From a virus: a stretch of 36,478 nucleotides of DNA. Positions 4,127-36,478 of this stretch are shown piece after piece. The stretch covers positions 1-36,478 of IMG/VR virus record IMGVR_UViG_3300031788_001721, one strand, 5' to 3'. Within the stretch, counting starts at the first letter, position 1; each line of letters starts with the position of its first letter. The position numbers were made by a program, and so were the translations under genes. The notes under the pieces are model-generated. The model was given only the letters and a program-made list of their open reading frames with translations, made no database searches and was not told where the DNA came from.

Positions 4127-4150
4127 GCGCCCCGTGCAATCGCCCGAGCG

Positions 4151-4382
4151 CAAGCGCCGGCCCCTTCCCGCGGCGCGTACAAGCGCAGCCGGGTGGGCGG
4201 ACCCGCGGCCCGTTGTCTGCCCGGGAGCAAGCGCCGGCCCCTTCCCGCGGCGCGTACAAGCGCAGCCGGGTGGGCGGACCCGCGGCCCGTTGTCTGCCCG
4301 GGAGCAAGCGCCGGCCCCTTCCCGCGGCGCGTACAAGCGCGGCCGGGTGAGCGGACCCGCGGCCCGCTGTTTGCCCCGGGGG
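4151..4382. repeat. 77-bp tandem direct repeat, three copies
   Basis: Units begin at 4151, 4228 and 4305, each starting CAAGCGCCGG. The first two are nearly identical over 77 bp. The third is diverged at several positions and one base longer. Because 77 is not a multiple of three, all frames stay open across the array, which explains the long low-complexity ORFs here. There are no spacers, so this is not a CRISPR array. A 25-base segment of the third unit (4338-4362) recurs exactly at 7208-7232, on the other side of the minus-strand gene block. Confidence 0.92.
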
Positions 4383-4395
4383 CAAGCCCCGGCCG

Positions 4396-4809
4396 CTATA
4401 TGCCACTCCCTGCCCGTTGAAAATGAACCGCTGTTGCCGTTTCAATAGCCGATTCCATCAAGTCGGGAATGTACCAATTCTCCAAGGGGTCCAAGGGGTT
4501 CGCGTAGACACACATGCTGATGGAATCGGCTACTTGCCACGTGCCGCGGGTGTCAAGGTATTCGGCAAGGCAGCAATAGCAACCCCATAGGTCAAGGTAG
4601 CGCTCGATTTCTGCCCGTTCCTTCGCGCTGTCCGGTTCCCCGTAAACGTCGAAATAGCCCTCTTGCTCCCCCTCCGCCCGCAATCGGACAAGCCCCGCGG
4701 ATTCCAAGTTGTCCCACTCCCGGACAATCCGCGCAGTGCGCAGGGATTCCCGGGCGGAGTAACCCGCCTTGCGCGCTTGCGCATACTCACGTTGCAGTGT
4801 TAGCGTCAT
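4396..4809 (-). CDS. Hypothetical protein, last gene of minus-strand block
   Basis: 137 residues with start at 4809, favoured over an in-frame ATG at 4824 because GAGGA lies about 8 bases upstream on the minus strand, while the upstream ATG has none. The N-terminal part (LTLQREYAQARKAGYSARESLRTARI) is a basic helical segment, followed by an acidic section (EGEQEGYFDVYGEPDSAKERAEIERYLD cut by a turn) and a Cys-containing CYCC motif. It overlaps the upstream gene by 23 bases. No family is recognised. The downstream side is the 77-bp repeat array, which is highly structured and may end transcription. Confidence 0.72.
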   Translation of the reverse strand: MTLTLQREYAQARKAGYSARESLRTARIVREWDNLESAGLVRLRAEGEQEGYFDVYGEPDSAKERAEIERYLDLWGCYCCLAEYLDTRGTWQVADSISMCVYANPLDPLENWYIPDLMESAIETATAVHFQRAGSGI

Positions 4810-17129: not shown

Positions 17130-17230
17130 TCGGGGTTTCACCCCGTCTAAACAGTGTATCCGTTTGCCTCTGTCGGGTTATTTCCGAGCGCCGGTGATGC
17201 TCTCAACGTTGCAAACGTGGGCGAGTGAGC

Positions 17231-18253
17231 ATGAAAGACACGCCGAGCCTTGAGCGGGAACTTGAGCGACGCGCTGCGAAAGACGCGAACGCTGAGAATC
17301 TGTGGCATCGGTACGAGACGATGCGACAGTACTTGGAAACCGAGTACTACGAGTGGGTGCAAACCGCATGCCCGTACTACACGGATCATGGCAAGCCGCA
17401 CATCCAGTCGGTCATCCAGACTGCCGGCTACCTGCTCGCACCGCGGTTGAAGAGCAAATCGGATCTCACGACGATGGATTTGTTCCTCATGCTCGCCGCC
17501 ATCATCTGGCACGACGTGGGCATGGTCTATGGTCGTTCGAATCATGCCGATCGGGTGCTCAAGTTGATGGAGAGCATCCGCACGCTTGGCTTCCCATGCC
17601 CTACGACACAGCGCCTCGTCAACGAGATCGTCCGTGCGCATGCGGGCGACAGGGGGTTGAGCGTCCCGAAACCCGACGAAGATTGCGCGATGGGCTCCGT
17701 CACGTACCAGGTGTATCCCCGAACACTCGCCGCCGTCTTGAAGTTCGCCGATGAGGTGTCCGAGAACCGTTCACGCATTAGTCTTGCACTGCTTCCCGAC
17801 GTACCGGAAGGCCAACAGATCTACTGGCAGTACGCCAGGGCGGTCGTGAGCGCCCGGCCGGAACCGGAGCGTGAGAGAATCGTCGTGACGATCGAACTCG
17901 ACACGGATGCGATTCTGCGTCGGTGCCCCTGCAGAGACTTCCACGGGCGCTGCGATGGTGAGGGAAAAATCTCCGTGCTGGAGTACGTCCTGTGCCGACT
18001 GGAGAAAATGAATAACGAACGGATTTACTGTGGCACGAGCCTGGCGAGATACGCATCTATCCGGGAGATCGAGGCCCGGCTGACGCTCGTCCGAGGAGCC
18101 GAACGCCACGGCGGCTATGACACCCTGACGCTGCCCATCGGCGATTGCGGCCTGGACCACACGTCATATCCGGGCGTCGGACTGTTCCAACCGTTCTTCG
18201 AGCGCCACCCGCAGTGGCGTCCGGAGACCCTTGCCGAGGCGCTGAAGCCATGA
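17231..18253 (+). CDS. HD-domain phosphohydrolase-like protein
   Basis: 340 residues from ATG 17231; a GTG two codons earlier is the alternative. Metal-site residues of the HD superfamily are visible: H53/H57 in DHGKPHIQS, the HD pair H94-D95 in IIWHDVGMVYG, H105 in SNHADR, H137 in VRAHAGD and D174 in LKFADEVSE. HD proteins hydrolyse phosphate esters, such as nucleotides or second messengers. The segment after residue 190 is unassigned, with Cys residues near CPCRDFHGRC that might bind a metal. The ATG of the ATPase gene overlaps its stop. In this operon it could be an effector or regulator of nucleotide signals (inference). Confidence 0.85.
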   Translation: MKDTPSLERELERRAAKDANAENLWHRYETMRQYLETEYYEWVQTACPYYTDHGKPHIQSVIQTAGYLLAPRLKSKSDLTTMDLFLMLAAIIWHDVGMVYGRSNHADRVLKLMESIRTLGFPCPTTQRLVNEIVRAHAGDRGLSVPKPDEDCAMGSVTYQVYPRTLAAVLKFADEVSENRSRISLALLPDVPEGQQIYWQYARAVVSARPEPERERIVVTIELDTDAILRRCPCRDFHGRCDGEGKISVLEYVLCRLEKMNNERIYCGTSLARYASIREIEARLTLVRGAERHGGYDTLTLPIGDCGLDHTSYPGVGLFQPFFERHPQWRPETLAEALKP

Positions 18254-20079
18254 CCGATATGAATACACTTGCGACTCCCGGCCTGTTACCCGGTAACCCT
18301 TTCGTGGTCGAGAGCCCGGAGAAGTTGCCCCCGGAGCAACTCGTCGGCCTTTTCATCGAGCAGTACACGCAGATCGAAACGGTCCGCCAGCGTCGGCACA
18401 CGTTCATTTGGGGGTCGAGAGGCTCCGGCAAGAGCATGATGCTGCGGTACTTGGAGCCACAGTGCCAGGGCATCGTGCATGGCGGGATCGAGAAGGTCTT
18501 CAGCACGTCCGAACCATTCCTCGGCGTGTACTGCCCCTGCAAGGAAGGGCAGTTGAACAAGACGGAATTCGAGACGCTCGATGAGTCGGCGACGGCGATC
18601 TTGAGCGAGCACCTCCTGAACATCACCATTGCGGATCGGCTGATTGTGTGTTTGCGCGATCAGTTCGCGGCCGGCGTGATCGGCGTATGTGAGCTGACGG
18701 CGTTCGCGAAGAAGGTGATCATGCTCTTCGAGCCGGCATCGATTGCCGCATCGGGGCGAGGAGCGACGGAATCGAACGACATTGCCGTTGATCCGCTGGG
18801 CTGGCTGCACCGATTGTTCAGCCTGGAGAATCTGAAGATCGGAGGATTCTTGCGCTGGCGGTGCCTCGGCCGCGGCGAGACGCAGTACGAGGGGGCGACC
18901 AGCGGCTACCATGATTTCCTGTTGCCGTTCATGCAGTTGGTAGGCGACCTTCCGGTGATCCGTGGTGCGTCCGTGTATGTGCTCCTCGATGATGCGGACC
19001 GCCTAAACCGAGTGCAACAGAGGATCGTCAACAGTTGGGTCGCGAACCGAGATAACCAATGGCTTTGCGTGAAAGTCTCGGCACAACGGGAGAAGTACGA
19101 CACGCTCCTGACGCTACGGGGCGGCCTGATTGAGCAACCGCATGACTACTCGGAAGTCAACGTGGAGGAGTTGTACACCCAATCGAAGTCCGACTACGCC
19201 AACAAAGTACGACTCATCGCCGAGCGCCGCCTGACGTTGTCCCCGCTCCCGGAGAAGAACATCGACCAGTTCCTCCCGGTGAATGACACGGAACGGCAGC
19301 GCTTCGACGACATCAAGAAAGAGACGGCAGAGGAGTGGCACAAGGCGGGAGAGCCGGGGAGGCAGGGCGACTACGTCACGCGCTACGCGACGGCGCGGCT
19401 GTTTCAGGAACTGAAACGAAAGAAGCAGCGCAAGAGCTATGCTGGATTCCAGAACCTGGTGCATCTTTCGTCGGGCATCGTGCGGGACTTCCTGGAACCA
19501 TGCTATCTCATGGTGGACGCATGCGTGAAGAAAGGGGCGAAGCTGGGTGAACTGCGCGCAGTACCGCCGAGCGTGCAGGATGAAGTCTGCTACCGGTACT
19601 CGGAAGAGTTCCTGGACGTGAAGCTCCAGGATATCCGGAAGGATCTTCCGCCGGAGAATTGGAGCCAATTGGACGCGTTGCGCACGTTGATCGAGTCCCT
19701 GGGGCGTCTCTTCTACGAACGGCTGCATGATCCATCGGCGCGCGAGGCTCGCGTGTTCTCCTTCACTGTGCGCGAGTCGCTCTCGTCGAACCTGGAGGAA
19801 ATCCTGCGACTCGGCGTGCAACATCGGTACTTCCAACGTCGCACCTACAGCACGAAAGAAGGCGGTGGACGCCAGCCCTGGTACATCTTGAATCGTCGCC
19901 TGTGCCCGGTCTTCAAGCTCGATCCAACGGGCTTTGAAGGACGTATCCAATTGAGCTCCGACCATTTGGAGCTTGCTTGCAGCGATCCTCCTCGGTTCGT
20001 CCGGATGCGTCTCGGCGTGGTGGAGGACGACGAGAACAGACCACTATTCCCGAGCGACCCTGGGGAGGAGAAGGAATGA
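18250..20079 (+). CDS. ORC/Cdc6-like P-loop ATPase
   Basis: 609 residues from ATG 18250, overlapping the HD gene stop (ATGA). Walker A is GSRGSGKS (residues 55-62) and a Walker B-like VYVLLDDADRL has D247/D248. This is the arrangement of an AAA+/STAND-related ATPase, of the type I recall being described as ORC-Cdc6-like in predicted conflict systems. The C-terminal third is predicted helical and includes a winged-helix-like segment near residues 500-560. It probably senses a signal or DNA and drives the activity of the HD and neighbouring proteins. It overlaps the next gene by 4 bases. Confidence 0.82.
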   Translation: MTDMNTLATPGLLPGNPFVVESPEKLPPEQLVGLFIEQYTQIETVRQRRHTFIWGSRGSGKSMMLRYLEPQCQGIVHGGIEKVFSTSEPFLGVYCPCKEGQLNKTEFETLDESATAILSEHLLNITIADRLIVCLRDQFAAGVIGVCELTAFAKKVIMLFEPASIAASGRGATESNDIAVDPLGWLHRLFSLENLKIGGFLRWRCLGRGETQYEGATSGYHDFLLPFMQLVGDLPVIRGASVYVLLDDADRLNRVQQRIVNSWVANRDNQWLCVKVSAQREKYDTLLTLRGGLIEQPHDYSEVNVEELYTQSKSDYANKVRLIAERRLTLSPLPEKNIDQFLPVNDTERQRFDDIKKETAEEWHKAGEPGRQGDYVTRYATARLFQELKRKKQRKSYAGFQNLVHLSSGIVRDFLEPCYLMVDACVKKGAKLGELRAVPPSVQDEVCYRYSEEFLDVKLQDIRKDLPPENWSQLDALRTLIESLGRLFYERLHDPSAREARVFSFTVRESLSSNLEEILRLGVQHRYFQRRTYSTKEGGGRQPWYILNRRLCPVFKLDPTGFEGRIQLSSDHLELACSDPPRFVRMRLGVVEDDENRPLFPSDPGEEKE

Positions 20080-21059
20080 GTCCCTTCCGATGTACGATTG
20101 CCCAAGCGATTCGGGATCAGGTGCTTCAGCCGGCAATTGTTGGCAAGCCTGACGATCTGTTCCTCGCGTGCGCGAGTTTCGAGCCGCGGAGCGTGAAAGC
20201 CGCGGAGTGCCTGCCGCCGACATACCGGGCTCGCCAGGCGATCATTTACGCCAACAGCGAGTGCCTCGAAGGCTGCCAGGGTGTGGGTACACGGCCGCAC
20301 TTGTACCAGTTGATTACAATTCTCGCGCGACACGCGGATCGGGTGGATGTCGTGGAGGGTTCGCTGTTCGACGCACCGAAGCAACTGGAGACGCTACGGA
20401 AGGCGTTACTGACGGACTGGCAGCCGCAGGATCAGCAACCCACGGTGACGATCGACACGACGACGTTTAATAGGGAATCGCTTCTCATCGCCTCCGCCCT
20501 CCTCCGATCGTTCGAGCCCAAGCCCACGGTGCGCGCAGTCTACGTGTCTCCGGCCGACCATGGATCGTGGCTGAGTCGAGGATTCCGTAGCGTCCGGAAC
20601 GTCGTTGGGTTCTCGGGTGTCCAAGACCCGAGTCAGCCGACGGTCTTGGCTGTCCTCGCTGGGTTCGAGCCTGATCGTGTCTTGAAGGTCATTGATGAGC
20701 ATGAGCCGAAGAAGGTGCTCATGGGCATCGGCGATCCGCCGACGACCGAACGGTTCCTGGCTCGCAATATCGCGGAGCAGGAGTTGGTGTTGTCCCGTCA
20801 GGACGTGGAGGAGTTCCGTTTCGCAACTGCCGACATCCACGAATGTTATACGCAGTTGCGGTGCCTGGTGGAGCCGTGCCTGCGAGAGAGCAACGTCGTA
20901 CTGGCTCCCATGAGCACCAAGCTGTCCACGCTTGCGGTGCTGCTGCTCGTGGAGGAGTTTCCGCAGATACAGGTCACGTACTGTGTGCCCGGCGAATACA
21001 ACGTGCGGGACTACTCGTCGGGAGCCGATACACTGTTCATCGACGGGCTGCCTCCATGA
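20076..21059 (+). CDS. Unrecognised protein of the defence-like operon
   Basis: 327 residues from ATG 20076 (ATGA overlap, GGAG about 9 bases upstream). The N-terminal part has a Rossmann-like strand-turn (DDLFLACASFEPRSVKAAE and AIIYANSECLEG). The C-terminal half contains NVVLAPMSTKLSTLAVLLL followed by VTYCVPGEY, a strand-helix-strand pattern that resembles the nucleotide-sensing CARF/Rossmann type. Neither is a secure assignment. It has no signal peptide or obvious catalytic triad. Its place between the ATPase and the DNA-modifying fusion suggests a specificity, sensor or partner role. This is the least explained gene of the operon. Confidence 0.78.
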   Translation: MSPFRCTIAQAIRDQVLQPAIVGKPDDLFLACASFEPRSVKAAECLPPTYRARQAIIYANSECLEGCQGVGTRPHLYQLITILARHADRVDVVEGSLFDAPKQLETLRKALLTDWQPQDQQPTVTIDTTTFNRESLLIASALLRSFEPKPTVRAVYVSPADHGSWLSRGFRSVRNVVGFSGVQDPSQPTVLAVLAGFEPDRVLKVIDEHEPKKVLMGIGDPPTTERFLARNIAEQELVLSRQDVEEFRFATADIHECYTQLRCLVEPCLRESNVVLAPMSTKLSTLAVLLLVEEFPQIQVTYCVPGEYNVRDYSSGADTLFIDGLPP

Positions 21060-22849
21060 AGACGGCCAAGACTCGGAATGTGAATCGCGTGAAGCGCCTG
21101 ACGGCGCTTCTGCTGCAAGAGTACGGCTTGCCGAAGCTGGGGAACAAACGGAATGCCCTCGACGAGCTGGTCTTCATCCTCCTCTCGGAGAAGACTGATG
21201 AGAAGAAATACCGTAAGGCGTACGCGAACCTGAAGGCGAGTTTCGGAACATGGAATGCGGTACGGACGGCGACATTGGCCGAGATCCGTAAGACTATCGC
21301 CTGTGCCGGTATGGGACAACGCCGGGCGAAACTGATCCGCGACATGCTGCGAAGCATCGTGGCACGCCACGGCAAGCTGACGCTCTCCTGGCTAAAAGGG
21401 ATGGAGCCTGACGAGGCCGAGCGTGCGCTCGTGGCGCTACCGGGCGTAGGCAAGAAGGCGGCACGCTGCGTGCTCCTATACTGCTTCGACATGCCGGTGC
21501 TTCCGGTAGACATCCACACCTTTCGCTTGGGCGTCCGGTTGGGATTCGTGTCGCGTCGCCTGTCGTACGACGCGGCGCACGCGGCATTGCAGGATGCCGT
21601 GCCTGCGGAGTCTCGCCATGGATTCCACGTGGCCGCGGTCGCACATGGACGCGCGCGCTGCCATGCGATCGAGCCCCAGTGTGATGGGTGCTGTCTCCGG
21701 CGCTCCTGTTCACACGGCCGTGCGGAAAAACCGTTGCCGGTCGCCGTTCGGCCGAAGCCACTTGCGGTCGATCTGTTCGCGGGGGCGGGTGGCATGAGTG
21801 TCGGGTTCCAAGAAGCGGGGTTCTCAATCGTGCAGGCCGTCGAGGAGGATCTGCGCGTCGCGACGACCTACCGGCACAATCACCGAAACACGGATGTGGT
21901 CCAAGAAGATATTCGGACTGTCGATCCAAAGGCGATCATGCGGAAGCTCGCGCTGCGACCGGGCGACCTGACGGCGATCATCGGCGGGCCGCCTTGTCAA
22001 GGCTTTTCTGAATCGAACCGGCGGACGCGGACGCTCGATAATCCCCGCAATCATCTGTACCAACAGTTCTTGGATGTCGTGGACGTAATGCGACCGGCTT
22101 GGTTCGTCTTGGAGAATGTGGCCGGCCTTCGCACGCTCGGCGGCGGCGAAGTACTGCAAGCGATCATCGGGGGTGCCAAGGATTTCGGCTACAAGGCGGA
22201 GTGTCGCGAATTGAATTCGGCAGAGTTCGGCGTCCCGCAGGTGCGCCGACGAGTGTTCGTCATCGGGAATCGCCTGGGAATCTCCATCCCGTTTCTCGAA
22301 GCGACGCACGGGCCGGAGAAACAACCGCTCGTGTCCGTCTGGGCGGCGATCGGGGATCTGCCGCTCCTGCGGAATGGAGATGAGACCGATGTCCTGCCGT
22401 ATAGAGCGGACGCTACGCTGTCCGCGTACCAGGTGATGATGCGATCGAAAACGAACGGCGTCGTGCAGGGGAACCTCGTGACGTGCAACGCGGACTACGT
22501 TCTCCAACGGTACAAATGCATCAAGCCAGGACAGAACTGGGAGGCGATACCGCACAAGCTGCTGAGGAACTACAAGGACTACACCCGTTGCCACACGGGC
22601 ATTTACTTCCGCCTGAAGCGAAATGAGCCATCGAAGGTGATCGGGAACTTCCGGAAGAACATGCTGATTCACCCGACGCAGAGCCGCGGTCTGTCAGTCC
22701 GGGAAGCGGCGAGATTGCAGTCATTCCCGGACTCGTACGAGTTCTTGGGATCGATCGGTTTCCAGCAGCAGCAGGTGGCGGACGCGGTGCCGCCGCTCCT
22801 TGCGGCTGCGGTGGCGCGGGCGATCCTCCGTGCCGATAGGCAGCAATAG
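21056..22849 (+). CDS. Fusion of endonuclease III-type DNA glycosylase and DNA cytosine-5 methyltransferase
   Basis: 597 residues from ATG 21056 (ATGA overlap). Residues about 1-220 form a helix-hairpin-helix glycosylase with LPGVGKKAARC (catalytic-type Lys134) and VDIHTF (Asp152). The 18-residue separation equals that of Lys120 and Asp138 in E. coli Nth. An intact 4Fe-4S pattern, Cys 202, 209, 212 and 218 (C-x6-C-x2-C-x5-C), follows. Residues about 235-597 form a C5-methyltransferase: motif I DLFAGAGG, motif IV PPCQGFS with nucleophile Cys314, ENVAGL, QVRRRVFVIG and a motif-X-like end (QQQVADAVPPL). The target recognition region is short. Separate glycosylases near C5-methyltransferases are known to repair G:T mismatches, but a fusion in a defence-like operon is unusual. 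Confidence 0.95.
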   Translation: MKTAKTRNVNRVKRLTALLLQEYGLPKLGNKRNALDELVFILLSEKTDEKKYRKAYANLKASFGTWNAVRTATLAEIRKTIACAGMGQRRAKLIRDMLRSIVARHGKLTLSWLKGMEPDEAERALVALPGVGKKAARCVLLYCFDMPVLPVDIHTFRLGVRLGFVSRRLSYDAAHAALQDAVPAESRHGFHVAAVAHGRARCHAIEPQCDGCCLRRSCSHGRAEKPLPVAVRPKPLAVDLFAGAGGMSVGFQEAGFSIVQAVEEDLRVATTYRHNHRNTDVVQEDIRTVDPKAIMRKLALRPGDLTAIIGGPPCQGFSESNRRTRTLDNPRNHLYQQFLDVVDVMRPAWFVLENVAGLRTLGGGEVLQAIIGGAKDFGYKAECRELNSAEFGVPQVRRRVFVIGNRLGISIPFLEATHGPEKQPLVSVWAAIGDLPLLRNGDETDVLPYRADATLSAYQVMMRSKTNGVVQGNLVTCNADYVLQRYKCIKPGQNWEAIPHKLLRNYKDYTRCHTGIYFRLKRNEPSKVIGNFRKNMLIHPTQSRGLSVREAARLQSFPDSYEFLGSIGFQQQQVADAVPPLLAAAVARAILRADRQQ

Positions 22850-22869: not shown

Positions 22870-23802
22870 ATGGAAAAAGAATGGGAGAAGTTGAGCCGGC
22901 CGCGGGTGGAGGCGTTGGATGAGATCCTCGGTGTGCCGTTCAAAGTCCTCGATGATGGCTTCGTGCGCGTCATCGACTACATGGGATCGGACGAATCCAT
23001 CGTGCAGGCGGCGCGCGTCTCGTACGGCACGGGAACCAAGAAAGTACGGGAAGACCAGGGGCTGATACGCTACTTACTGCGGCATCGCCATACGACGCCC
23101 TTCGAGATGTGCGAAATCAAGCTGCATGTGCGCGTCCCGATGGATACGTGGCGACAGTGGATTCGGCACAGGACGGCGAATGTGAACGAGTACTCGACAC
23201 GGTACTCGGTGGCAATCGACGCGGCGCAACGGACGACCCCAGGAGAATGGCGGAAGCAGTCCCAGACGAACCAGCAAGGGAGTAGCGGTACCGTCGATGC
23301 GGAAGTCGGGGCACATCTCTCCGATCGCGAGAAGGCTGTACAGGTACTGGCACGTGACGTCTACGAAGAGCGCCTTCGACTGGGCATTGCAAGGGAGCAG
23401 GCGAGAAAGGATTTACCTCTAGCGACGTACACGGAGGCGTACTGGAAGATCGATCTGCACAACCTGTTGCATTTTCTCCTGCTCCGCATGGACGCACACG
23501 CGCAGCAGGAAATTCGCAGCTACACGAATATCATTGGGCAAACGATCGTCAGCAAATGGTGCCCCCTCACCTGGCAAGCATTCCTGGATTTTCAGTTGCA
23601 AGCAGTTTCATTCTCCCGCCTGGAATTGGAAATCATCCGCGCACTGCATAGTGGCGATATCGCGATGGCCGTGCGGCGGGCCGAAGAGGAAGGATTGCTC
23701 GTGCGGGAGGAGCAAGGCTTTCGGCGGAGCAGGGAGCGCGATGAGTTGGAGGAGAAGCTGAGCGTAATAGGCTTAGAGGTGCCGTGGCGCGAAACGCGCT
23801 GA
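22870..23802 (+). CDS. thyX: Flavin-dependent thymidylate synthase
   Basis: 310 residues from ATG 22870, 20 bases after the fusion gene, with GGAGGAG about 10 bases upstream. The ThyX signature RHR-x7-S is present (RHRTANVNEYS), along with a WRQWIRHR helix and the typical all-helical second half (LLHFLLLRMDAHAQQEIRSY). The enzyme makes dTMP from dUMP using FAD, NADPH and methylene-tetrahydrofolate in the cytoplasm. Presence in a defence-type operon is unusual. It may support nucleotide supply or metabolism during the immune response, may alter nucleobases, or may be a host-like gene picked up by the element. Confidence 0.93.
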   Translation: MEKEWEKLSRPRVEALDEILGVPFKVLDDGFVRVIDYMGSDESIVQAARVSYGTGTKKVREDQGLIRYLLRHRHTTPFEMCEIKLHVRVPMDTWRQWIRHRTANVNEYSTRYSVAIDAAQRTTPGEWRKQSQTNQQGSSGTVDAEVGAHLSDREKAVQVLARDVYEERLRLGIAREQARKDLPLATYTEAYWKIDLHNLLHFLLLRMDAHAQQEIRSYTNIIGQTIVSKWCPLTWQAFLDFQLQAVSFSRLELEIIRALHSGDIAMAVRRAEEEGLLVREEQGFRRSRERDELEEKLSVIGLEVPWRETR

Positions 23803-23839: not shown

Positions 23840-25168
23840 ATGGGACTCCCTGCAATTGGCGAGATAATCGACGGCCTTTTCAAGATAGAACGGAAGCTCG
23901 GCAGCGGAGCCACCGGGACGGTCTTCGAGGTTCAGCTCAGTGTTCCGTGGACATCGTTCCGAGCAGGTGAACGATTCTGCTTGAAATGGTACGCCCCCGC
24001 GATTTTCGAACGCGAAGAGGCGCGGATAATAATCGCGCGGCGAATTAGAGAGTCGATGGTCGGCAGTTACCTGGCACACCCGAACCTCGTGAAGGTCCAC
24101 GATACAGCCGCCTTCTGGAAGGATGGCTTGCCGCGGTACGTGGTGATGAGCCTTATTACAGGCGAGACTCTGGAAAGCCTGACCAGCCGTGGACCTGTGC
24201 CCACGGATTTGGCTCGGAATCTGCTCCTCGGAACCGCCAATGGACTGAAAGCGCTGCACGATCACGGTATTCTCCATAGAGATGTGAAATCCGCGAACGT
24301 AATGCGCGACAGTGGCGGCCAAGCGGTGTTGCTCGACCTGGGCGTCGTGCGACTTCAGAGCGAAGCGACCGTTACCAATTCACAGAGTTTCTTGGGAACT
24401 CTTCGGTTCGCAGCGCCCGAATGGCTGTTCCGGGAGGAATGCAGCACTTCTTCGGATGTCTATTCGTTGGGCACAATAGGCTATCAGCTTCTTACCGGGC
24501 AGCCGATTTTTTCCGATATTGGTCTCTATTCTCGGCTGGTGATGGCCGTCCGAAACCAACCCATAGAGATCGAGGATTCCGGCTGGTCGCCTGAGCGGAG
24601 ATACCTCGGCAACGTTGTGCGGCGAATGCTCGCAAAGGAGCCCGAAAGCCGACCGAGTCTCGATGTGGTAATCGAGTGCTTGAGCAATTACCGCCGCCGC
24701 GACGCGTGGTCGTGGCTTGAACGCAATGGCATCTTTCGGAAGTTGGGAAGCGACCTCGGTTCGGATAGCCCTCGGCAGCGACGATTCGTTCAGGCAGTCC
24801 TAGAACTTTACGGTGAAGAGACTCTCCGTCGCCTCATGCGAGAAAACCACACGGACCAGGTTGTGTCCGACCCACGGCTGCGGCGGATGTTCTATTTGAT
24901 GAGCACGGGAGAAGCCGTGAAAGACTACTTGTCGACGCCAGCCGAAGGGCGCAAGGTGTGGGTTGAGGCGATCCTAGGAGCTTACGATGATACGCACTAT
25001 GCTGGCGCGTGTGCAGAACTCGAGGGGCGATCAGATCTTCTCGACGAAGTGTATCAGAGCGAATCCTCCGAAGAGATCAGGGCGCAGATCAAGCCGATGG
25101 TTGATGCTGCACGAGCCGAATTTGACGAGGAGTTCGACGCTGCCATGCTTGAAGGTGGCGGCGATTAG
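23840..25168 (+). CDS. Hanks-type Ser/Thr protein kinase
   Basis: 442 residues from ATG 23840, 37 bases after thyX, with only a weak binding site. Kinase motifs are complete: glycine loop GSGATGTV (residues 21-28), Lys49 in FCLKWY, HRDVKSAN with Asp148, Lys150 and Asn153, DLG with Asp166 in place of DFG, and APE (192-194). The kinase domain ends about residue 270. The C-terminal 170 residues are helical and unassigned, with no membrane segment, so the protein is probably cytosolic. It may regulate the operon or act as a separate defence kinase. It is less GC-rich in places than the flanks. Confidence 0.93.
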   Translation: MGLPAIGEIIDGLFKIERKLGSGATGTVFEVQLSVPWTSFRAGERFCLKWYAPAIFEREEARIIIARRIRESMVGSYLAHPNLVKVHDTAAFWKDGLPRYVVMSLITGETLESLTSRGPVPTDLARNLLLGTANGLKALHDHGILHRDVKSANVMRDSGGQAVLLDLGVVRLQSEATVTNSQSFLGTLRFAAPEWLFREECSTSSDVYSLGTIGYQLLTGQPIFSDIGLYSRLVMAVRNQPIEIEDSGWSPERRYLGNVVRRMLAKEPESRPSLDVVIECLSNYRRRDAWSWLERNGIFRKLGSDLGSDSPRQRRFVQAVLELYGEETLRRLMRENHTDQVVSDPRLRRMFYLMSTGEAVKDYLSTPAEGRKVWVEAILGAYDDTHYAGACAELEGRSDLLDEVYQSESSEEIRAQIKPMVDAARAEFDEEFDAAMLEGGGD

Positions 25169-32394: not shown

Positions 32395-33867
32395 TTGGTT
32401 GTTGAGTTCATCACCAACATCGTCGAAGTCAGGCACCCGAGTTACCTCAGCAGCCTGCTGGACTGGCGCAAATGGCGGATTTGCTACAACGGCGGCGAAT
32501 ACTTCCGCAAGCTGTACCTCAAAAAGTTCTCGTCGCGGGAGGATGAACCGGAGTTCCAGGCGCGGCTGGATATGACGCCGATCCCATCGTTTGCTCGGGT
32601 GGCTATCAACGATGTCCGCAATGCCATCTTCCAGCGGCTCAAGGACACGAGCCGGCGCGACGGCAGCAGTGCGTATCAGCGGGCGGTCAACGGCTTGGAC
32701 CTGGGCGTCGATCTCCGCGGCAACACCATGAACGGCTTCTTGGGCATCAAGGTACTGACCGAGTTGCTCATTATGGGCCGCGTGGGCGTGTACGTCGATT
32801 CCCCACTGGTCCCGGGCAACGCCACCTTGGCGGACGTGAAGAATTATCGGCCGTACCTGTACTTCTACCCCATTGAAGACATCCTGAGCTGGACTTGCTC
32901 CAAGCCGGACGAGCCGTCCACGTTCCAGGCGATTCTGCTCCGCGACGTAGTTCTCAACTTCGACCAGCGGACCTACCTGCCAACTACGACCGTCGAGCGG
33001 TTCCGCATGTTGTGGATCGACCGCGACACGGGTCTGGTCAACCTGCAATTTCTGGACACCGCCGGAAATCCCATCGACCGTGAGGGGAACCCGGCCGGGG
33101 CCGTGGAGTTGGAGTTGACGCGCATCCCTTTCGTGTTGCTGGACATCGGCGACTCGATGATTAAGGACGTGGTGGAGCAGGAGAACGAGTCACTACCTAC
33201 AAAACGCGAAAGGCCGTGTCCTACGCTTCACGGCGGCCGATTTGCTGGCGGTGAAGTGAACGGTCGCGGCCATAATCCAGGCGGCACAGGATCGACGATA
33301 GGACGAATCGAGACGCGAGTAGGTGTTTTCACACGGGGTCGGAAAACAGACTCGCCAAGGCCCCTGGCCCGCAATTTCAGGCGTTCCATCCGCAAGAACT
33401 GCTGTCGCGTTGGCACGCCGGCCACGAAGCGTATAAACGCGCTGGCAGAGGCCGGGAAAGCGCGATGTTGTGTTGCGACGCGGGACGGCCGAAATCTGAG
33501 GCTGGGCCTGCGGGCAGCCAGTATCACAGAATCGGCTGCCACAAGGAGCAACATCGGACAGCCTCGACACTATGGTCCCTGGCGGCAGAATGCCCAAACC
33601 AATGATCGCCCCCCCATAATGGGCGTAAGTAAGCAGCCTGCATCACAATGCCAGCCGGGCGTCGTCAATTCTATGTTCCCGATTCACGGCCTCGCCGGGC
33701 CTTTGACAACGGCGTCAAGCTTTCTGGCATTGCCATCGTTATATCGCCCTAGCCTGCCACCGGGGAAAGGCGTGGTGCTCGTGATCGACTGCCAGACCAG
33801 GCAACTTCGGCGGTTCGATTACGAGGAGTTTGTCACCCCGCAGCCGATGGAGAAGAATTGGATTTGA
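32395..33867 (+). CDS. Phage portal protein, truncated and read into unrelated sequence
   Basis: TTG 32395 with AAGGAG about 7 bases upstream. Residues 1 to about 265 (nucleotides to about 33189) look like a portal protein: a basic N-terminus, FARVAINDVRNAIFQRLKD, LLIMGRVGVYVDSP, YRPYLYFYPIEDIL and LTRIPFVLLDIGD. From about 33190 the frame continues by chance through low-complexity Arg/Gly/Pro sequence with a different composition. Normal portal proteins of this type are about 450-500 residues, so roughly half the gene is missing. The function is probably lost. The junction marks the end of the recognisable phage module. Confidence 0.78.
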   Translation: MVVEFITNIVEVRHPSYLSSLLDWRKWRICYNGGEYFRKLYLKKFSSREDEPEFQARLDMTPIPSFARVAINDVRNAIFQRLKDTSRRDGSSAYQRAVNGLDLGVDLRGNTMNGFLGIKVLTELLIMGRVGVYVDSPLVPGNATLADVKNYRPYLYFYPIEDILSWTCSKPDEPSTFQAILLRDVVLNFDQRTYLPTTTVERFRMLWIDRDTGLVNLQFLDTAGNPIDREGNPAGAVELELTRIPFVLLDIGDSMIKDVVEQENESLPTKRERPCPTLHGGRFAGGEVNGRGHNPGGTGSTIGRIETRVGVFTRGRKTDSPRPLARNFRRSIRKNCCRVGTPATKRINALAEAGKARCCVATRDGRNLRLGLRAASITESAATRSNIGQPRHYGPWRQNAQTNDRPPIMGVSKQPASQCQPGVVNSMFPIHGLAGPLTTASSFLALPSLYRPSLPPGKGVVLVIDCQTRQLRRFDYEEFVTPQPMEKNWI

Positions 33868-34397
33868 TCCGAGAGTCGCCCTGGTCGCCCGCTGCTATTG
33901 CCACAAGCAAGCGACCACCAAGGTGCATGGATCGAACGGTATGCCCCCCGTCACCCTGCGGCTATGGTCGGTAAATGAACTACTGCCGCCGCGATTCTGG
34001 GTATCTATTTCGAATTAGCCAAAAGATTTTTTTGGCATCTTGTGCCAAGTTTACTTGGCGCGCGGCTGGACTCACGTCACATTGAGGTCAACTGGCTTTG
34101 TTGACGCCCCGCCGCCGATAGGTAGAATGAGGCCCTGTCGATGAGCCGGTTTCCAATGGTGGCGGTCGCAGCACGGAGGGCGGGACGCTTTCACGCACGG
34201 CGCGCACGCTGCGGTGGGACGTTTGTGTGCGCACCCCGGAGGCAGTAGCCATGAAGGGCGCTGCGGTGGTGGGCCGGACCTTTCTCAATAGCGGCCACGA
34301 TGTCGCGGGCATCGTGACGACCGCGATTCTCTTGCTCGCTGTGGCTTCTAAGCCCCAGCAACTGGCATCCGGGCCGGTCCCGGAAGCGGCCTCCCTT
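33190..34397. other. Junction and intergenic region downstream of the truncated portal
   Basis: About 1.2 kb with no confident gene. Minus-strand ORFs at 33193-33597 and plus-strand ORFs here look compositional. A Gln/Arg-containing stretch at about 33675-33867 (ending EEFVTPQPMEKNWI) looks mildly protein-like. Two hairpins lie around 34018-34034 (GCCAAAA/TTTTGGC) and 34044-34059 (GCCAAG/CTTGGC). No tRNA, integrase or clear attachment repeat was found here. Confidence 0.45.
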
Positions 34398-34427
34398 TTG
34401 CCTCTTGGCCTGCGGTCGCTCTATAAT
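34398..34427 (+). promoter_or_regulatory. Promoter of the gene at 34451
   Basis: TTGCCT (34398-34403) and a perfect TATAAT (34422-34427) with an 18-base spacer, ending 23 bases before the ATG. TTGGCC (34405-34410) is a less likely -35. Confidence 0.65.
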
Positions 34428-34450
34428 CCAATCTGTGGGAGCCTCGTTCC

Positions 34451-35416
34451 ATGATAGTAACCATTGCGGAGCGATTGGCGCAAGCGACTGACGCGAGGAG
34501 ACCAGGCAACGGCGATCGTCCGGCCTCGTGTGAGAATCCTTGCAAGTCGCTCATCAACGGCGAAGCGTGGGATGCCTACCGCCTGGACTCGCTGCTCGCG
34601 TTGAAGGAGACGTACCGGGAAAATACGGAGTTCGGTTTCTTGATGAGGCATTACTGGATTCCGGCGACCGTGCTCACCTTCCGGCAGTCGTCGCAGATGG
34701 CGTTGCCGGATGGGCGCGTGGATCGGCTTGAGTTGAACATTGAGCGGACGATGGCCCGATGCCGGTCCAACGAGTGCCTGTGGCGGGAGAAGATTCGTCC
34801 AGCGGCGGCAGTCAATCGTAGCACTGCAAGCACTGAGGAGATTCCTCTGCTGAGCGAGATGCTCTGCTCTTATGATTGCTACGAGCAGACATATGCCTCC
34901 GACAAACCGATCCTCTTTAAGCCGCCCGGCCCTGACCAGCAGGTGGAGGCTCGTCGCAAGGCACTTTATTGCCTGCCCATGCTTTGCCCACCGGGGCCGG
35001 TGCCGATCGGTTTTCGCTGGTACGGCAAGGTGGGCGACGACTACATGAACTACCACTTGGAGGCTGAGGAGCGGCTCGGCGAGACTTCCGTGCTGGTCAT
35101 TCGTCGCGAGGGGCGGTATACTTCATGGGTCCCCCGCGAGTTGGCGGGCTGCAAGGCGGTTCCCCTAGTTACCCAGCGCCAAGGCGTCACGCTGTTTGCC
35201 TGGAATCGCGGGGCGGTGCTGGAGGACCGATTTCAGGATCGCGTGATCGCGGCAGACCGTTTTTTGGCTTCCAGCGTGGACATAACGACCCAGGTTGTCA
35301 CTCGCTTGGTTCGTTCCTGCCCGGAGAATCTGGCAAAGCCAGTTCTACCCCCACCTGACGAGCGGTATTGTGATGGCAAAGCAGTCCCTTCTCGCGCCGA
35401 GAGCGGGCAAGGGTAA
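34451..35416 (+). CDS. Hypothetical chromosomal protein
   Basis: 321 residues from ATG 34451, with GGGAG 9 bases upstream and a promoter before it. No signal peptide. The N-terminal half includes CENPCKSLINGEAWDAYRLD and a central LLSEMLCSYDCYEQTY segment, suggesting a mixed fold with possible metal-binding Cys residues. The C-terminal half contains RWYGKVGDDYMNYHLEAEER and VLVIRREGRYTSW. I recognise no family. Co-directional with the gene after it, likely host rather than phage-derived because of its planctomycete-like style. Confidence 0.66.
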   Translation: MIVTIAERLAQATDARRPGNGDRPASCENPCKSLINGEAWDAYRLDSLLALKETYRENTEFGFLMRHYWIPATVLTFRQSSQMALPDGRVDRLELNIERTMARCRSNECLWREKIRPAAAVNRSTASTEEIPLLSEMLCSYDCYEQTYASDKPILFKPPGPDQQVEARRKALYCLPMLCPPGPVPIGFRWYGKVGDDYMNYHLEAEERLGETSVLVIRREGRYTSWVPRELAGCKAVPLVTQRQGVTLFAWNRGAVLEDRFQDRVIAADRFLASSVDITTQVVTRLVRSCPENLAKPVLPPPDERYCDGKAVPSRAESGQG

Positions 35417-35479
35417 TGGCCCCGTTGTCGCAGCGGGGTGTTCTCGTTCGAGAGCCACGTTTTATGAAAGGAACGAGTC

Positions 35480-36478
35480 ATGGGATTCAGGGACAACAAA
35501 GTCACCCGACGGGTGGCACTTGGGACGATTGCCGCGGGAATGGCTGGATCGGCATTCGTCATTAAAGCTCTAAAGGCCAAGTATCAGACGCCGATTCCCG
35601 CCTCTCCGCGGTATGAGGAAAAGTTCGTAACGGCGTGGGCGGATAGTTTGAAGCAAATCGCCATTCCGAGCCAGAAAATCGCGGGGCCTTCCTCGTTTTC
35701 CGTCAAGTTGAATGTGCCAGAAGGGAAGGCTTACGACGTTTTCGTGCTGGATTGCAGTTTCACGGAGGGGGAAAACGTCGAAACATTGGACCCGACCGTC
35801 TTCCCCTTAGTTTTCACTAGAGGCCATGGAATAATAAAGGCCAAGCGGCTGGCGGGAAAAGATTCACTCGTGCTGTCTGCGAAAGCCGACCTTTTTGAGG
35901 CACTTGCACGAAATTGCGACCCCGCGAAGGGCCTGGACACCTCCACCGGTGAATATGTTTTTGTTCCAAAGGGCGACCGCATCGGCGATGTGATTCTGAG
36001 CGATGGCTCCACTCGTTCCTTTCCTGGCGGGAACCTGCCGCTCTGCTGCACCTATTTAGCCTCGGCTCTCTGGTACTACTTCCCGGGCGAAGCACACCTC
36101 AAGGCTGGAGCGAATTGGCAAATCCCTCCAGGCATCGATTCGGAATTTGCGCTGCCGTGCGAGGTTGTCGGTTTTGAACGAATGGCAGGTAGAGATACGG
36201 CTGTCATTTCCTGCCGTCGCGAACAGCAGGAGTTTCGGACTAGCAACAACTGTGTGTATGTGAGTGTTGCGAAGGTAAGCAGGACCCACAAAGAGGTGTT
36301 AAAGACAACGTCAAAGGAATTTAAGTCCAGGAACAGTTTTCACCTGACGGCGCACCTCGACTTGGAAACAGGGCTTCCGGTGCGTCAAGAGCTTAGATCG
36401 CGAGGAGAGCTACAGATGCCCAATTCACATGTCCACTCGGTCATGGGGTTCCATCTCAGTCGTATCTTAGACGCGTAG
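35480..36478 (+). CDS. Secreted/anchored hypothetical protein with Tat-like leader
   Basis: 332 residues from ATG 35480, with AAAGGAAC upstream. The leader KVTRRVALGTIAAGMAGSAFVI has a twin-Arg pair followed by a hydrophobic stretch, consistent with a twin-arginine signal or membrane anchor. The mature part is beta-rich with KLNVPEGKAYDVFVLDCSF and GDVILSDGSTRSFPGGN, and a C-terminal HLTAHLDLETGLPVRQE segment. No catalytic motif is visible. The stop codon is the last three bases of the window, so the gene is complete. It shares transcription direction with 34451-35416. Confidence 0.68.
   Translation: MGFRDNKVTRRVALGTIAAGMAGSAFVIKALKAKYQTPIPASPRYEEKFVTAWADSLKQIAIPSQKIAGPSSFSVKLNVPEGKAYDVFVLDCSFTEGENVETLDPTVFPLVFTRGHGIIKAKRLAGKDSLVLSAKADLFEALARNCDPAKGLDTSTGEYVFVPKGDRIGDVILSDGSTRSFPGGNLPLCCTYLASALWYYFPGEAHLKAGANWQIPPGIDSEFALPCEVVGFERMAGRDTAVISCRREQQEFRTSNNCVYVSVAKVSRTHKEVLKTTSKEFKSRNSFHLTAHLDLETGLPVRQELRSRGELQMPNSHVHSVMGFHLSRILDA

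What the first reader, a model, noticed from the sequence alone, without database searches (positions are those of the whole stretch)
21056..22849. DNA glycosylase (Nth type) fused to a cytosine-5 methyltransferase
One protein combines a complete endonuclease III-type glycosylase (Lys134, Asp152, 4Fe-4S cysteines 202/209/212/218) with a full C5-methyltransferase (Cys314). It may both write and excise 5-methylcytosine, repair G:T mismatches made by deaminated 5mC, or attack modified phage bases. Mismatch glycosylases near C5-methyltransferases are known, but a covalent fusion within an operon with an HD protein, ATPase and ThyX is not one I know.
Basis: partly seen in the sequence, partly recalled or inferred. 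Interest (0 to 1): 0.88.

Follow-up and report, generated by a model that had tools for sequence, protein, structure and literature searches.

The report
Glycosylase-fused methyltransferase in phage defence-like cassette
A phage-like genome carries one protein that methylates cytosine in DNA and, most likely, also repairs the mutations such methylation causes; it sits in a conserved, uncharacterised gene cassette that looks like an anti-virus defence system, whose closest relative uses a separate repair enzyme instead.

Summary
The fusion is real. Window 21056-22849 is one 597-residue frame: an EndoIII-like HhH-GPD domain (Lys134, Asp152, four cluster cysteines) joined to a complete C5-cytosine methyltransferase (Cys314). 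A second, non-identical IMG/VR record carries it intact. It is the fourth of four translationally coupled genes (HD-CE, ORC-CDC6-like ATPase, tandem-CARF protein, methyltransferase), then ThyX and a kinase. I collected 17 distinct loci; in 14 the four genes are contiguous. None of the other 16 has the glycosylase. Six have a vsr gene (T:G nickase that repairs deaminated 5mC) nearby, four of them directly beside the module, including the window's sister locus, which has the same five genes in the same order. So the likeliest role is T:G repair in cis: Vsr replaced by a MIG-like solution and welded to the methyltransferase. Erasing 5mC or attacking phage bases is not excluded but found no support. 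ThyX is enriched in the module (5 of 17 against 1 of 75 other viral methyltransferase loci) and unexplained. Haloarchaeal plasmids carry a comparable fusion with an EndoIII-like part lacking the catalytic lysine. New variant of a known kind, inside a module that PADLOC and NCBIfam do not name.

The parts
17225..18253 (+). HD-CE family protein (HD motif HDVG)
   Evidence: Pfam PF24391 63.6 bits, cut-off 27; motif
18250..20079 (+). ORC-CDC6-like P-loop ATPase, Walker A GSRGSGKS; ATGA overlap with HD-CE stop
   Evidence: Pfam PF24389 306 bits, cut-off 27; junction; invariant G58, G60, K61, D247, D248
20076..21059 (+). Tandem CARF/SAVED-like protein (CARF6 type), predicted ligand sensor; ATGA overlap with ATPase stop
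   Evidence: PADLOC PDLC01917 4.9e-68; model pLDDT 89.6; best VIA match Can1 6sce Z 12.9, rmsd 3.7, 229 aligned; junction
21056..22849 (+). Fusion gene, 597 aa: EndoIII-like glycosylase plus C5-cytosine methyltransferase; ATGA overlap with CARF stop
21110..21712 (+). EndoIII-like HhH-GPD domain with 4Fe-4S cysteines, residues 19-219
   Evidence: NF053634 124 bits, residues 19-219; DrEndoIII1 structures 2.3e-28; K134, D152, C202/209/212/218
21761..22834 (+). C5-cytosine methyltransferase domain, about residues 236-593, with the target-recognition region shared by most module loci
   Evidence: TIGR00675 175 bits, cut-off 100.65; PADLOC MTase_II PDLC03234 residues 236-592; alignments
22870..23802 (+). 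ThyX, FAD-dependent thymidylate synthase, RHRx7S motif intact
   Evidence: TIGR02170 175 bits, cut-off 87.9; alignment
23840..25168 (+). Ser/Thr protein kinase, 37 bases after ThyX; found in the module only here
   Evidence: Pfam Pkinase 126 bits

Best explanation
The protein is the self-marking methyltransferase of a conserved four-gene module (HD-CE, ORC-CDC6-like ATPase, tandem-CARF protein, C5 methyltransferase) carried by a tailed phage or prophage. Its methyltransferase half makes 5mC at one sequence (shown: intact motifs; inferred: activity and site). 5mC deaminates spontaneously to T, giving T:G mismatches at exactly the methylated sites. The fused EndoIII-like half patrols those sites, removes the T (or U) opposite G and, with Lys134, may also cut the abasic strand, so that host polymerase restores C (inferred). 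It does the job that a separate Vsr does in sister modules and that MIG does beside M.MthTI. The other three genes are predicted to form a CARF-gated ATPase/HD defence response that spares DNA bearing the mark (inferred from families only).
For: Fusion in one frame in two non-identical records. ATGA overlaps at three junctions. Four genes contiguous in 14 of 17 distinct loci. Closest relative L003 (sister in ATPase tree 98/99, in methyltransferase tree 99/96) has the same five genes in the same order, an unfused methyltransferase, and vsr directly before HD-CE. vsr directly beside the module also in L113, L011 (same strand) and L126 (convergent). Vsr or Nth in 7 of 17 module loci against 11 of 75 other viral methyltransferase loci, Fisher p 0.02. 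Precedent: pFV1 carries mig near a C5 methyltransferase and a restriction gene. Lys46 stands where E. coli-type EndoIII has Gln; MIG and DrEndoIII1 have Arg there (for Arg61). Catalytic Lys134 and Asp152 kept.
Against: No assay; substrate of the glycosylase is not shown. Its nearest kin are DrEndoIII1-like proteins (34-36% identity to L128-L131), not MIG (23%), and MIG has Tyr where it has Lys134. Vsr accompanies C5 methyltransferases in general (11 of 75 controls), and Vsr alone is not significantly enriched here (6 of 17, p 0.08). In L007 and L127 the vsr gene lies beside another methyltransferase and may serve that one. Ten of 17 loci show neither Vsr nor Nth in the stretch held. DrEndoIII1 acts on oxidised pyrimidines (passages), so oxidised-base repair is possible. 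Defence activity rests on family names only.
Confidence: 0.65

Rival explanations
1. The glycosylase half excises 5mC itself (ROS1/DEMETER-like), so that one protein writes and erases the mark, perhaps under control of the CARF/ATPase proteins.
For: ROS1 chains match better than E. coli EndoIII in the PDB sequence search (2.6e-18 against 8.4e-16); Lys and Asp of bifunctional enzymes kept.
Against: Better matches are DrEndoIII1 and DrEndoIII3. Fused to its own writer an unregulated eraser would nick self DNA continuously (inference). Sister modules pair the methyltransferase with Vsr, which repairs T:G.
Confidence: 0.08
2. The glycosylase half is an effector that attacks modified or deaminated bases of invading phage DNA, the methyltransferase half targeting or sparing it.
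For: The module lacks a recognisable restriction nuclease in the operon (Pfam and PADLOC) and looks defence-related (CARF).
Against: The domain is absent from the other 16 module loci, so it is not needed for the module's core action.
Confidence: 0.1
3. The glycosylase half repairs oxidised pyrimidines (thymine glycol, 5-hydroxycytosine, oxidised 5mC) as its DrEndoIII1-like kin do, and is fused for general genome care.
For: Nearest solved kin are DrEndoIII1 (2.3e-28), which acts on thymine glycol and 5-hydroxycytosine, mostly as a monofunctional glycosylase (passages).
Against: Does not explain fusion to a C5 methyltransferase nor the Vsr in the sister locus. The domain scores far below the curated cut-offs of both nth (90.5 of 211.7) and DR2438 (124 of 400) models.
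Confidence: 0.14
4. Artefact: two genes joined by an assembly or sequencing error.
For: Only two closely related records show it.
Against: Two non-identical records with the same frame; linker without stop or shift; start codon overlaps the upstream stop by ATGA.
Confidence: 0.02

Closest known systems
Dcm with Vsr (very-short-patch repair)
   Same: C5 methyltransferase with a dedicated enzyme for T:G from deaminated 5mC; Vsr occurs beside sister modules
   Different: Here an unrelated EndoIII-fold glycosylase takes the place, and it is covalently joined
MIG thymine/uracil-DNA glycosylase beside M.MthTI on plasmid pFV1
   Same: EndoIII-fold T:G glycosylase encoded near a C5 methyltransferase on a mobile element; basic residue at the Gln position
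   Different: Separate genes there; MIG has Tyr for Lys134; 23% identity
DrEndoIII1 (DR2438) group of EndoIII-like proteins
   Same: Best PDB and NCBIfam match; Arg/Lys instead of Gln
   Different: Stand-alone; window domain scores below the curated cut-off
Haloarchaeal plasmid methyltransferases with an EndoIII-like N-terminal region (WP_123078971, WP_255194679)
   Same: N-terminal EndoIII-like region fused to a C5 methyltransferase
   Different: Catalytic Lys missing, no Pfam HhH-GPD match at E up to 1, 22% identity; no HD-CE/ORC/CARF among the features listed
CARF-gated defence proteins (Can1, Can2, Csm6, Cap4/Cap5 SAVED)
   Same: Fold of the third gene
   Different: No nuclease domain attached; paired with an ATPase and an HD protein, no CRISPR or cyclase gene seen in the operon

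Membership tests
C5-cytosine DNA methyltransferase | Catalytic motifs incl. PPCQ, ENV, QRR and curated model score | tested here: met
   TIGR00675 175.2 bits over cut-off 100.65; Cys314 invariant
Endonuclease III (nth equivalog) | Curated TIGR01083 score | tested here: not met
   90.5 bits, cut-off 211.7
HhH-GPD glycosylase superfamily | HhH, catalytic Asp, curated Pfam score | tested here: met
   35.2 bits, cut-off 26.2; Asp152
Bifunctional EndoIII-type glycosylase/lyase | Catalytic Lys after LPGVG | tested here: met
   Lys134 by alignment; activity not tested
DR2438 monofunctional glycosylase | Curated NF053634 score | tested here: not met
   124 bits, cut-off 400
MIG mismatch glycosylase | Tyr at the Lys position; close sequence | tested here: not met
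   Lys134; 23% identity. Working like MIG is not excluded
ThyX | RHRx7S motif and curated score | tested here: met
   TIGR02170 175.4 bits, cut-off 87.9; RHRTANVNEYS
CARF/SAVED sensor | Fold | tested here: met
   CARF and SAVED chains make up most of the top 46 of 50 VIA rows, best Z 12.9. Foldseek's best E-values were cation-chloride cotransporters at TM 0.23-0.29
CARF/SAVED sensor | Binds a cyclic oligonucleotide | not testable with these tools
   -
Type II restriction-modification | Cognate restriction nuclease beside the methyltransferase | tested here: inconclusive
   No nuclease family among the six operon proteins in Pfam or PADLOC; HD-CE could be a hydrolase or nuclease

The most novel reading that the evidence does not exclude
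One polypeptide is a complete mark-or-cut machine: when S-adenosylmethionine is plentiful it methylates its site; when the cofactor runs out (for instance in an infected cell) the methyltransferase half deaminates C to U at the same site and the fused glycosylase/lyase turns it into a strand break, giving restriction without a nuclease, with ThyX tied to the thymidylate economy of the response. Cofactor-starved C5 methyltransferases deaminating C is recalled from the literature, not from a call.
Probability: 0.06. Interest if true: 0.88.

Novelty: new variant of a known kind. Interest (0 to 1): 0.56.

Why it matters
It would show a methyltransferase that carries its own repair of the mutations it causes, in cis, and non-homologous replacement of Vsr by an EndoIII-fold enzyme between sister loci. 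More widely, the fusion points to a recurrent module (C5 methyltransferase, HD-CE, ORC-CDC6-like ATPase, tandem CARF, sometimes ThyX and Vsr) on phages, plasmids and chromosomes that the defence library used here does not name as a system; why thymidylate synthase travels with it is an open and testable question.

Tried and rejected
Rejected: assembly artefact. Rejected as proof of substrate: closeness to ROS1, because DrEndoIII1 and DrEndoIII3 score better. Structure of the fusion: mean pLDDT 67.4, the glycosylase part mostly 30-70 because no homologue lay in the alignment there, so it was not used for fold searches. Search for glycosylase kin in viral contigs found only the second record. 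Of 299 genomes searched with the glycosylase domain 261 had a match, of which 30 loci were fetched; in those 30 the frame ends within about 30 residues after the domain, so none is a fusion.

Against or beside the reading: L014 has a methyltransferase of this group but no other module gene in 17 kb, and groups with L112 in the tree, so the methyltransferase group is not exclusive to the module. L115 shows only ATPase and CARF; L126 begins at a contig edge; L127 has its methyltransferases more than 3.5 kb away. The regular expression for the HD motif failed in 3 of 16 HD-CE frames (L093, L094, L123). The ThyX profile was built from three module ThyX proteins, and the Vsr profile from four module loci, which favours the module set; loci share ancestry and flanks differ in length, so the Fisher values are rough. 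Control: the best 80 of 486 viral methyltransferase relatives (capped list), less 5 with an ATPase or HD-CE match (L013, L015, L016, L017, and L067, which has an ATPase-profile match without HD-CE or CARF and also a Vsr match), leaves 75. Trees: 5 of 13 (ATPase) and 3 of 12 (methyltransferase) inner branches well supported, long-branch warnings; the ATPase tree leaves out L094 (split over the record start), the methyltransferase tree leaves out L115, L126, L127. Genome samples with the ATPase profile: 3 of 398 including the centre, 1 of 48, the centre itself, 2 of 369 including the centre; the samples overlap.

Papers: searches (10 of 10). Searches returned nothing; three plant papers (listing only); one search gave 32 papers, 12 listed, none on this subject; one BREX paper (PMC12839542, passages read, nothing on this module). 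PMC9268735 and PMC9266487: passages read; the passages shown of the latter name no methyltransferase fusion. Subscription journals are mostly not held, so absence from print is not shown.

Full report
Observation. The frame at 21056-22849 encodes 597 residues with an HhH-GPD domain and a C5-cytosine methyltransferase, both above Pfam's curated cut-offs. Catalytic Lys134 and Asp152, the four cysteines of the iron-sulphur cluster and Cys314 are in place. The window is an IMG/VR virus record. A second record, G002, encodes the identical protein but is not a copy of the window: it differs in a repeat near 4.1-4.4 kb and has no match to the window after base 33179. Phage character: terminase, portal and site-specific recombinase genes in the window, major head and tape-measure genes in G002.

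Operon. HD-CE, the ORC-CDC6-like ATPase, a CARF-type protein and the fusion are joined by three ATGA overlaps; ThyX starts 20 bases and a kinase a further 37 bases after the preceding stop (coordinates, junctions). PADLOC and NCBIfam have no family at the thresholds used for HD-CE and the ATPase; the CARF protein matches only PADLOC's CARF6 models. The CARF protein was modelled at pLDDT 89.6 from 10 window and viral or MAG sequences; VIA-align ranks Can1 first (Z 12.9, rmsd 3.7, 229 residues aligned), and most rows above Z 8 are CARF or SAVED proteins. Foldseek's own lowest E-values were cation-chloride cotransporters at TM-scores of 0.23-0.29, which I take for a chance similarity of the Rossmann-like layout.

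Module. By methyltransferase, ATPase and HD-CE queries in viral contigs, plasmids and genomes I gathered 17 distinct loci. In 14 the four genes are contiguous (window, L003, L113, L007, L095, L011, L008, L017, L117, L093, L094, L107, L123, L119); L126 is cut by a contig edge, L127 has its methyltransferases some kilobases away, L115 shows ATPase and CARF only. All 4 plasmid records with an ATPase match are the 4 best methyltransferase records. Two peptide patterns from the methyltransferase target-recognition region found 7 viral relatives, all 7 in module records, which suggests a shared target site; L112 and the lone L014 lie outside that pattern.

Glycosylase or Vsr. The glycosylase domain is found only in the window and G002; the other 16 module loci lack it at E up to 1e-4. 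Six of the 16 carry vsr in the stretch held: L003 (directly before HD-CE), L011 (directly before the methyltransferase), L113 (directly after ThyX), L126 (convergent, after CARF), and, less telling, L007 and L127, where vsr lies beside another methyltransferase. L003 is the window's sister in the ATPase tree (98/99) and the methyltransferase tree (99/96), and alone shares with it the order HD-CE, ATPase, CARF, methyltransferase, ThyX. Vsr or Nth occurs in 7 of 17 module loci against 11 of 75 other viral methyltransferase loci (Fisher p 0.02; viral loci only, 4 of 9, p 0.05; Vsr alone, 6 of 17, p 0.08). The numbers are small; the sister pair is the stronger argument.

Which glycosylase. The best PDB matches are DrEndoIII1 and DrEndoIII3, then ROS1 (2.6e-18), E. 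coli EndoIII (8.4e-16) and MIG (5.2e-7). The domain has Lys46 where E. coli-type proteins have Gln; L128-L131 and MIG have Arg there and DrEndoIII1 has Arg61 (passages of PMC9268735). Lys134 predicts a lyase step that MIG, with Tyr, lacks. It falls short of the curated nth and DR2438 cut-offs. So substrate cannot be read from sequence; T:G is favoured by context.

Precedents for the architecture. Two haloarchaeal plasmid proteins align with the query over 90% in one piece. Their N-terminal region matches the glycosylase domain weakly (22%, E 6e-8), lacks the catalytic Lys and gets no HhH-GPD match; a third plasmid (CP002989) has the same region under features annotated methyltransferase and hypothetical protein. 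No phage record of 1317 with a match covers 80% of the query.

ThyX. It occurs in 5 of 17 module loci (window, L003, L113, L007, L095) against 1 of 75 controls (p 0.0007; viral loci only, 3 of 9, p 0.003); motif intact. I have no convincing explanation: supply of dTMP during a nucleotide-depleting response by the HD protein is a guess.

Verdict. Real, previously undescribed as far as the searches reach, best explained as a methyltransferase with built-in T:G repair inside an uncharacterised CARF-containing module. Confidence 0.65 in the repair reading; the architecture itself is near certain.

Noticed in passing
L003 5641-12080, L113 6743-13214, L007 8262-14704, L095 6793-12784: ThyX travels with the HD-CE/ORC/CARF/methyltransferase module in five loci including the window, on either strand.
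   Followed up: partly
window 33180-36478: The window and the near-identical record G002 part ways after base 33179, just inside the portal gene region; different ends, recombination or misassembly.
   Followed up: no
window 4142-4397: Repeat whose copy number differs between the window and G002.
   Followed up: no
L005 7710-9956, L006 7050-9290: Haloarchaeal plasmid methyltransferases with an EndoIII-like N-terminal region that lacks the catalytic lysine, possibly a non-catalytic reader of 5mC or T:G.
   Followed up: partly
L003 3509-16694: The module sits between a tail-protein gene and a tape-measure-like gene, an unusual place for cargo.
   Followed up: partly
window 23840-25168: Ser/Thr kinase in the operon, absent from the other 16 module loci; PADLOC matches are kinases of PD-T4-6 and MADS type.
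   Followed up: partly
L007 14309-17247: On the Agrobacterium plasmid a vsr gene, a protein with a weak DpnII-like match (E 0.15) and a second C5 methyltransferase follow the module, perhaps a separate restriction system.
   Followed up: partly
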